Assembly: GCA_015063905.1 (NCBI GenBank)
Contig: SVTF01000002.1
Span: 1-64,000 of the forward strand
From: Oscillospiraceae bacterium
GTDB lineage: Bacteria > Bacillota > Clostridia > Oscillospirales > CAG-272
DNA: 64,000 bases
Reading direction: 5' to 3'
The position numbers and the translations under genes are program-made. Below the pieces are notes generated by a model that was given only the letters and a program-made list of their open reading frames with translations, had not been told where the DNA came from and ran no database searches. Of this stretch, positions 3,586 through 4,726 are shown one piece after another (position 1 is the first letter of the stretch; each line of letters opens with the position of its first letter).

Positions 3586-3948
3586 TTAAAGAAGATGTAT
3601 GGGGAGCTTTCCGCCGAGCTGTATCTTCTGGAAATTGTCCTTTTGGCTGTGTCCCGTGACCTTTTCAACGGTTTCGGGAGCGACGTTTGTTACTACCGAG
3701 GTTTTAACATTGGGTTTAGCAGACGTCGCGGTTTTTGCGGTTTTGGGCGCTGTGGGCTTTTTAGCCGTTGTAGCTTTAGCCGTTGTCGCCTTTTTAGTCG
3801 TTGCCTTTGCGGTTGTTGCGGCTTTTTTAGCAGGCTCCTTTTTTGCGGGAGCTACGCCTGTTGTGGCAACAAGCTCGGGTGCCTCGTTTTTCTTTTCCGG
3901 TTCTATTTTAGCTACTCTCTTTTGAATACTGGATTTACCTATCGGCAT
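3586..3948 (-). CDS. Lys/Ala/Thr-rich (histone H1-like tail) small protein, candidate ParA partner
   Basis: MPIGKSSIQKRVAK...KKEPAKKAATTAKATTKKATTAKATTAKKPTAPKTAK...; RBS (aggaggtag) lies inside the 3' end of parA; ORF overlaps parA by 14 nt. Confidence 0.75.
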   Translation of the reverse strand: MPIGKSSIQKRVAKIEPEKKNEAPELVATTGVAPAKKEPAKKAATTAKATTKKATTAKATTAKKPTAPKTAKTATSAKPNVKTSVVTNVAPETVEKVTGHSQKDNFQKIQLGGKLPIHLL

Positions 3949-4726
3949 ACTTAACTACCTCCTGCGCCATCGCCATATATTCCTGAGCCGCGCGGCTCGA
4001 TTTTTTATATACCATTACGGGTTTTGAGTTGTCCTGCGACCATTCTATCGTGCTATCCACACGAATGATAGATTCAAAGAGTCGCACGTTGTCAAGCTCG
4101 GAGAGCGTTTCAACGGTTTGCTTGAAATAGTTTTTGCGTTCGCTTGCCTTAGTAATGGCAATTCCAAGTATCTCAAGCTCGGGAGATATACGCTTGACCT
4201 GCTCATAAAACTCAAACATATTAGCAAGGCCAAACAGACCCCAAGGCGAAGCTTCAACAGGGATAACCAAAAAGTCAGACGCACACATAATGTTCATTAC
4301 CCAGCAACCAAGTGTAGGGGGAGCGTCTATGAGTATGTAGTCGTATTTTCCGCTTTCCTTGATCTTTTTCAAGCCCTCGCGCAAAATAAACTCTCTCTGC
4401 CATTTGGTGAAAAGCTCAAATTCTATGGAGCTCATCAGCGTGGATGAGGGGATAAGGTCAAGATTCTCATATTCGGTGGGAAGCGTGTAGCTTGAAAGAT
4501 CCTTTTGGTTGATTATACCTTTGTATATGTTTTTCTGTCCCTTAGCCATTTCAAGCGATTTTTCATCATCGAAAAAATAGAGAGTGAGGTTCATCTGCAT
4601 ATCGGCATCAATAAGCAGTACGCGCTTGCCTAGCGTGGATAGCGAATATCCTATGTTTGCACACGTTGTGGATTTGCCGCTTCCGCCCTTGTTGTTGGCA
4701 AAGCATATGGTTTTTGTTGTTGCCAT
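3935..4726 (-). CDS. ParA/Soj-type ATPase
   Basis: Deviant Walker A NNKGGSGKSTTCANIG; VLLIDADMQMNLT; YDYILIDAPPTLG. Start at MATTKTI chosen by GGAGG RBS. Confidence 0.93.
   Translation of the reverse strand: MATTKTICFANNKGGSGKSTTCANIGYSLSTLGKRVLLIDADMQMNLTLYFFDDEKSLEMAKGQKNIYKGIINQKDLSSYTLPTEYENLDLIPSSTLMSSIEFELFTKWQREFILREGLKKIKESGKYDYILIDAPPTLGCWVMNIMCASDFLVIPVEASPWGLFGLANMFEFYEQVKRISPELEILGIAITKASERKNYFKQTVETLSELDNVRLFESIIRVDSTIEWSQDNSKPVMVYKKSSRAAQEYMAMAQEVVKYADR

What the first reader, a model, noticed from the sequence alone, without database searches (positions are those of the whole stretch)
3586..4726. ParA ATPase and a Lys/Ala-rich partner at the end of a GRE-microcompartment operon: candidate BMC positioning module
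The last two genes are a ParA with KGGSGKSTT and a 120-aa basic low-complexity protein, overlapping by 14 nt with the second gene's RBS inside parA. No ParB-like gene is seen. ParA-type McdA with small, poorly conserved, disordered McdB positions carboxysomes, so the same logic here would be an McdAB-like system for a GRM-type compartment. The preceding gene is EutP/PduV-like, a family also linked to microcompartments, giving a possible three-gene spatial-organisation cassette.
Basis: partly seen in the sequence, partly recalled or inferred. Interest (0 to 1): 0.82.

Follow-up and report, generated by a model that had tools for sequence, protein, structure and literature searches.

The report
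ParA–adaptor pair for metabolic microcompartments
At the end of a gene cluster for a bacterial protein organelle sits a motor-like ATPase and a small tail protein that recur together almost only in bacteria that build this kind of organelle, so they probably space the organelles inside the cell, much as a known pair does for carboxysomes.

Summary
parA (3935-4726, -) and a 120-aa Lys/Ala/Thr/Pro-rich gene (3586-3948, -) overlap by 14 nt at the 3' end of a complete propanediol-dehydratase, aldolase-type GRM locus (GRM5-like). The pair is conserved. In 80 ParA relatives, 72 are followed by a protein with an N-terminal M-x-[IVL]-G-K-x-S-[IL]-x-[RK] motif and a C-terminal [LM]-P-x-[Y/H/F/W]-L-L tail.

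51 of 80 loci contain shell genes. Of 27 genomes whose ParA lies away from shell genes, 26 have shell genes elsewhere. In 397 genomes of the order, this ParA occurs in 11, all BMC-positive (58 are). The ParA is distinct from the genome's own Soj; no second ParB or parS is present.

Best explanation: a nucleoid-based BMC positioning pair that works like McdAB, N-motif to ParA and C-tail to shell. McdB-like proteins near GRM/PDU loci with C-terminal Y/F were already reported (PMC11321042), so the basic idea is not new.

New here: genome-wide co-occurrence, the bipartite signature, and relatives whose linker is a ParB/Srx domain without DNA-binding parts, suggesting descent from ParB. EutP is not an obligatory third member. 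Function is untested experimentally.

The parts
3935..4726 (-). parA: ParA/MinD-family ATPase, 263 aa (proposed BMC-positioning ATPase, McdA-like in role)
   Evidence: PF13614 E 4.5e-53; Walker A/A'/B motifs; clade separate from Soj, 100/100
3586..3948 (-). small adaptor, 120 aa: N-motif MPIGKSSIQKR, K/A/T/P-rich linker, C-tail KLPIHLL
   Evidence: N- and C-terminal motifs conserved in 72 of 80 loci; -14 nt overlap conserved
3904..3948 (-). N-terminal motif of the adaptor (proposed ParA-binding and ATPase-stimulating part)
   Evidence: G4 71/73, K5 67/73, S7 72/73, R/K10 70/73 (partly conditioned on the search pattern); basic/aliphatic like ParB N-motifs (PMC12462528)
3586..3609 (-). C-terminal tail [LM]P-x-[YHFW]-L-L of the adaptor (proposed shell-binding part; His at -3 here)
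   Evidence: P(-5) 73/73, aromatic/His(-3) 73/73, L(-2) 72/73, L(-1) 69/73
3464..3502 (-). inverted repeat with T-run, likely terminator of the operon
   Evidence: 17-nt arms, 88% complementary, AAAAAA...TTTTTT flanks
4742..5179 (-). EutP/PduV-like GTPase-fold protein, next gene upstream; not obligatory for the pair
   Evidence: PF10662 E 2.7e-47; adjacent in 40 of 46 loci
5456..5827 (-). EutS-type BMC-H shell protein
   Evidence: NF012012 E 1e-30, under its cut-off; PF00936
5882..6676 (-). GRE-activating radical SAM enzyme
   Evidence: TIGR02494 above cut-off
7044..9581 (-). glycyl radical enzyme, propanediol-dehydratase type
   Evidence: best PDB match 5i2a, E 0
9662..10207 (-). PduT-like tandem BMC shell protein
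   Evidence: two BMC domains
10247..11572 (-). PduS/RnfC-like electron-transfer protein
   Evidence: PF01512, TIGR01945
11680..11928 (-). BMC-P pentameric vertex protein (EutN/CcmL)
   Evidence: PF03319 E 1.8e-24
11951..12610 (-). PduL phosphotransacylase
   Evidence: PF06130 E 1.2e-75
12826..14239 (-). four BMC-domain shell genes (domain matches at 12826, 13205, 13565 and 13967)
   Evidence: PF00936
14236..19104 (-). alcohol dehydrogenase, aldehyde dehydrogenase, class II aldolase, acetate kinase of the GRM
   Evidence: Pfam hits

Best explanation
The two genes encode a dedicated positioning system for this propanediol-dehydratase GRM compartment. ATP-bound ParA dimers coat the nucleoid. The small protein is a tether with two ends: its basic N-terminal motif engages the ParA dimer and stimulates ATP hydrolysis, the Lys/Ala-rich middle is a flexible spacer, and its C-terminal [LM]Px[aromatic]LL tail docks on the shell. 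Compartments then follow ParA gradients over the nucleoid, are spread out, and are shared between daughter cells. Shown here: gene structure, conservation of the pair and of both ends of the adaptor, co-occurrence with BMC loci, and separation from the chromosomal ParAB. Inferred: nucleoid binding, ATPase stimulation, shell binding and the positioning itself. The adaptor probably descends from a ParB that lost its DNA-binding parts and, in most lineages, also its ParB/Srx domain.
For: Conserved pair: 72 of 80 ParA relatives are followed by a protein with the N-motif; all of these also carry the C-tail, although the C-tail was not used to find them. Linkage: 51 of 80 loci hold BMC shell genes. 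Unlinked cases: 26 of 27 genomes carry BMC genes elsewhere, and 20 BMC regions from those genomes are related metabolosomes, 15 with the class II aldolase and 10 with the same GRE. In 397 genomes of the order, ParA (>=57% identity; all others <=37%) is in 11 genomes, all among the 58 BMC-positive ones (hypergeometric 2.7e-10, treating genomes as independent). Same-genus contrasts agree: g12 one +/+ against three -/-; g14 one +/+ against one -/-. The class sample adds 2 more ParA genomes, both BMC-positive, against 89 of 292 overall. The ParA clade is split from Soj/other ParA at 100/100; the genome has its own soj-spo0J and no second ParB_N; no parS site with up to 2 mismatches in the window. 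Literature: McdB N-termini bind McdA and C-terminal aromatics bind carboxysomes; Y can replace W (PMC11321042, PMC12204374).
Against: No functional data. Many aldolase-type GRM loci of the same order lack this ParA (e.g. G357, G363, G422, G182, G235, G206), so such compartments can do without it. Eight ParA relatives have no partner gene next to them, and none was seen in the BMC regions fetched for seven of those genomes. One ParA-positive genome (G704, 76% complete; its ParA region is L109/L083) shows no BMC gene and another (G022) only one match. The window copy has His, not W/Y/F, at -3. Salmonella Pdu compartments do not need ParA, MinD or McdAB (PMC12866334). The 80 relatives were chosen by similarity to a BMC-linked ParA, and genomes are not independent.
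Confidence: 0.76

Rival explanations
1. The Lys/Ala-rich linker is itself a histone-H1-like DNA binder, and the adaptor tethers compartments to the nucleoid directly, as PhaM/PhaF/AlgP do for PHB or polyphosphate granules. ParA only modulates this.
For: The linker is 20.6% A, 19.7% K, 11.7% T, 10.4% P, and 43 of 59 linkers have net charge >= +5. KPAA-type repeats are frequent. Precedents are reviewed in PMC13052382.
Against: 5 of 59 linkers have net charge <= 0, four of them in BMC-linked loci (L027, L028, L029, L056), and ParB-domain partners have little of this composition, so strong basicity is not a conserved requirement. The search started from ParA, so adaptors without ParA would have been missed.
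Confidence: 0.1
2. A partition (ParABS-like) remnant from a plasmid or integrative element that became fixed next to the BMC locus and serves DNA segregation or nothing.
For: ParA by sequence is nearer to chromosomal ParA (best PDB match 8ray, M. xanthus ParA, 127 bits) than to cyanobacterial McdA (58 bits). Some partners hold a ParB_N domain.
Against: No HTH or dimerisation part in any partner aligned, no parS, strict conservation of both adaptor ends, and co-occurrence with BMC genes even when unlinked.
Confidence: 0.06
3. The pair acts on the BMC in another way, for example shell assembly, size or copy-number control, cargo loading, or regulation of the operon, rather than spacing.
For: Co-occurrence shows a BMC link, not the kind of link. 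Axen et al. (PMC4207490) list ParA only as an ancillary BMC gene.
Against: The demonstrated function of ParA plus basic-N-terminus adaptor pairs on BMCs is positioning (PMC8262871, PMC10241942).
Confidence: 0.08

Closest known systems
McdAB carboxysome positioning system (S. elongatus, H. neapolitanus)
   Same: ParA-type ATPase with a small, low-complexity partner encoded directly downstream; basic N-terminus; conserved C-terminal motif with an aromatic residue near acidic residues; BMC linkage.
   Different: Metabolosome, not carboxysome. C-tail is [LM]Px[Y/H/F/W]LL with the aromatic at -3 (His in the window) instead of the invariant Trp. ParA is closer to chromosomal ParA than to solved cyanobacterial McdA. 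The partner family includes ParB/Srx-domain members.
McdB-like proteins near PDU and GRM loci (PMC11321042 Fig. 4; PMC8262871)
   Same: Already reported near GRM loci with Y or F within the last five residues, as in most members here. The window's family is probably part of that set.
   Different: No functional test of them in those reports. Genome-wide co-occurrence, the N/C bipartite signature and ParB/Srx-domain partners were not found in the texts read (the figure itself could not be read).
Chromosomal ParABS (Soj/Spo0J)
   Same: ParA fold and motifs; N-terminal ParA-binding-like region; ParB/Srx domain in 14 relatives of the partner.
   Different: No HTH, dimerisation domain or parS; ENxQR motif lost while GxxR is kept; separate clade; the chromosomal pair is present elsewhere in the same genome.
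PadC and other ParB-like proteins with the ParB/Srx fold
   Same: The model of L074's partner matches the fold (6ryk and others), without DNA-binding parts.
   Different: Different cargo; the window's own adaptor has no such domain.

Membership tests
McdAB | ParA/MinD ATPase with deviant Walker A, partner gene directly downstream | tested here: met
   KGGSGKST; 14-nt overlap
McdAB | Charged N-terminus on the partner | tested here: met
   GKSSIQKR; K5 67/73 and R/K10 70/73
McdAB | Low-complexity, compositionally biased region in the partner | tested here: met
   78% K/A/P/T/S/E in the window linker; by composition only, no disorder predictor was run
McdAB | Invariant C-terminal tryptophan | tested here: not met
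   His at -3 in the window; family Y48 H12 F7 W6; Y/F noted for other BMCs in PMC11321042
McdAB | Association with carboxysome genes | tested here: not met
   Locus is a propanediol-dehydratase GRM
McdAB | ParA in the McdA clade | tested here: inconclusive
   No alpha-McdA sequence on hand; cyanobacterial McdA scores 58 bits against 127 for M. xanthus ParA
McdAB | Nucleoid-based spacing of compartments | not testable with these tools
   Needs microscopy
ParABS | ParB with HTH next to parA | tested here: not met
   No such gene beside parA; only ParB_N in the genome is on C37
ParABS | parS sites nearby | tested here: not met
   One 3-mismatch site at 49115, expected 0.28 by chance
ParABS | ParA in the Soj clade | tested here: not met
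   Split at 100/100 from 13 Soj/other ParA rows of the same order
ParB/Srx-domain proteins | ParB_N domain in the partner | tested here: not met
   No hit in the window's adaptor; met in 14 relatives (fold)
GRM (GRM5-like) locus | GRE plus activase, class II aldolase, AldDH, PduL, BMC-H/T/P | tested here: met

The most novel reading that the evidence does not exclude
BMC-positioning adaptors of the McdB kind arose here from ParB. A ParB-like protein kept its N-terminal ParA-binding motif and its ParB/Srx domain, lost the DNA-binding and dimerisation parts, gained a shell-docking C-tail, and in most lineages then replaced the ParB/Srx domain by a low-complexity Lys/Ala linker. Some BMC loci would still run an adaptor with a ParB-type nucleotide-binding fold.
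Probability: 0.5. Interest if true: 0.78.

Novelty: new variant of a known kind. Interest (0 to 1): 0.62.

Why it matters
How compartments other than carboxysomes are placed in cells is open; the only firm case is McdAB. A clear, conserved ParA-adaptor pair tied to a widespread gut metabolosome gives short motifs to mutate and cultured hosts to test. The ParB/Srx-domain partners would explain where a poorly conserved, low-complexity adaptor came from and would link organelle positioning to chromosome segregation.

Tried and rejected
Chromosome/plasmid partition: rejected on clade, absent parS/ParB and partner anatomy. EutP-ParA-adaptor as a fixed cassette: rejected because EutP is about 9 kb away in 6 loci and many pairs are unlinked. 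Partner of orphan ParA hidden in the BMC locus: not found in the BMC regions fetched for seven orphan genomes (L112-L119). A DNA pattern search for partners in orphan genomes was too loose to use. The sample around G499 was meant to be wide but that family held only 9 genomes. MacCready 2021 (PMC8359340) is not held, so its list of McdAB-like loci could not be read. A first automatic split of partners into ParB-domain and linker types misfiled L073, L079 and L084; corrected by eye before the tree, the counts and the Pfam check.

Full report
Observation. On the minus strand parA (4726..3935) and a 120-codon ORF (3948..3586) end the operon. They overlap by 14 nt, with AGGAGG inside parA nine bases before the second start. 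An inverted repeat with a T-run follows at 3464-3502. Upstream lie EutP, EutS-type BMC-H, GRE activase, GRE, PduT, PduS/RnfC-like, BMC-P, PduL, four BMC-domain genes, ADH, AldDH, class II aldolase and acetate kinase. The GRE matches the Roseburia diol dehydratase 5i2a best. With the aldolase this fits the GRM5 type of Axen et al. (PMC4207490), which was linked to fucose/rhamnose breakdown; the type call is by gene content.

Is the small ORF real? Yes. A scan of 80 ParA relatives shows a matching ORF starting inside or just after parA in 72. It starts at -14 nt in 56 of them. The partner was picked by its N-motif only. All 72, and the window, end in [LM]P-x-[Y/H/F/W]-L-L or a close form: Pro(-5) 73/73; -3 is Y48 H12 F7 W6; -2 is L in 72; -1 is L in 69. 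The C-tail conservation is therefore not circular; the N-motif numbers are partly conditioned on the search. The middle is free in length (whole protein 63 to 175 aa in the linker type) and made mostly of A, K, T, E and P.

Is it tied to microcompartments? 51 of 80 loci contain shell genes in the DNA held. For 27 others I searched the whole genome: 26 have BMC genes elsewhere. I read 20 BMC regions from those genomes; they are related metabolosomes with PduT, PduS, PduL and AldDH relatives, 15 with the class II aldolase and 10 with the same GRE. In 397 genomes of the window's order the ParA family is sharply bounded (57% identity and more, against 37% and less for all other ParA listed). It occurs in 11 genomes, all within the 58 with BMC genes and none of the 339 without. 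The hypergeometric value is 2.7e-10, but genomes are related, so the same-genus contrasts (g12, g14) matter more. In a class-wide sample the two further ParA genomes are BMC-positive, against 89 of 292 overall. The reverse does not hold: many GRM loci of the same order have no such ParA. So the pair goes with the compartment, but the compartment does not always need the pair.

Is it a partition system? The genome has its own soj-spo0J pair on C37, flanked (by eye) by gidA/gidB-like genes and serS, and no other ParB_N. The window has no parS closer than 3 mismatches. In a 98-row tree the 85 family members part from 13 Soj/other ParA of the order at 100/100, though over a very long branch. The family has its own motif set: DxDMQ instead of DxDPQ, FTKWQRE, and PVEASPWGLFGLANMF. 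Sequence alone puts it nearer to M. xanthus ParA (127 bits) than to cyanobacterial McdA (58 bits). I therefore do not file it as McdA.

The partner's origin. In 14 relatives, spread over about five places in the ParA tree, the partner carries a ParB_N domain between the same two motifs. All 14 hit PF02195 at E <= 0.01. The profile matches Noc, ParB and Spo0J structures at about 1e-11. An AlphaFold2 model of the BMC-linked L074 partner has a core at pLDDT 80-87 (mean 67.9) that matches ParB-CDP, Noc, KorB and PadC. HTH and dimerisation parts are missing; GxxR is kept and ENxQR is lost. Several linker-type partners (L045, L049, L055, L067) keep an IHExKF-like element seen before the C-tail of the ParB-type ones. 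The simplest reading is descent from ParB with repeated loss of the domain. Repeated gain of the domain is not excluded.

Mechanism. [quoted passage not shown] The first 20 residues of H. [quoted passage not shown] The bipartite adaptor here fits that plan end for end. Steps beyond sequence are inference.

Prior art. Axen 2014 (PMC4207490) lists ParA among ancillary BMC genes. [quoted passage not shown] Basalla 2024 (PMC11321042) names GRM and PDU McdB-like proteins with Y/F in the last five residues. Against easy generalisation, Salmonella Pdu compartments are unaffected by ParA, MinD or McdAB (PMC12866334).

Limits. MAGs are incomplete; the relatives were found from a BMC-linked query; eight ParA genes lack a neighbouring partner; no alpha-McdA sequence was available for the tree; nothing here is experimental.

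Noticed in passing
window 5353-5445, 6753-6845, 6846-6938, 6939-7031: A 93-nt direct repeat occurs four times in two intergenic gaps of the GRM operon (EutS-EutP gap and activase-GRE gap), three copies exactly head to tail; its 26-nt core is not expected by chance.
   Followed up: partly
L053, L057, L070, L074, L078, L079, L082-L086, L088, L089, L091: Partners of the same ParA family that carry a ParB/Srx domain without HTH, several inside BMC loci.
   Followed up: yes
L051, L059, L062, L066, L071, L076, L080, L107: ParA relatives with no adaptor gene beside them although their genomes have BMC genes; where their partner is, if any, is unknown.
   Followed up: partly
window 39941-54424: Four consecutive genes for proteins of about 1140-1180 aa on the minus strand; the first has a right-handed beta-helix match, as does 34599-37169.
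   Followed up: no
window 232-3271: Next to the operon end: a protein that looks by eye like a DapA/NanA-type lyase (no family search run), a BNR-repeat (sialidase-like) protein and an AraC-type regulator, suggesting a second sugar-use locus.
   Followed up: no
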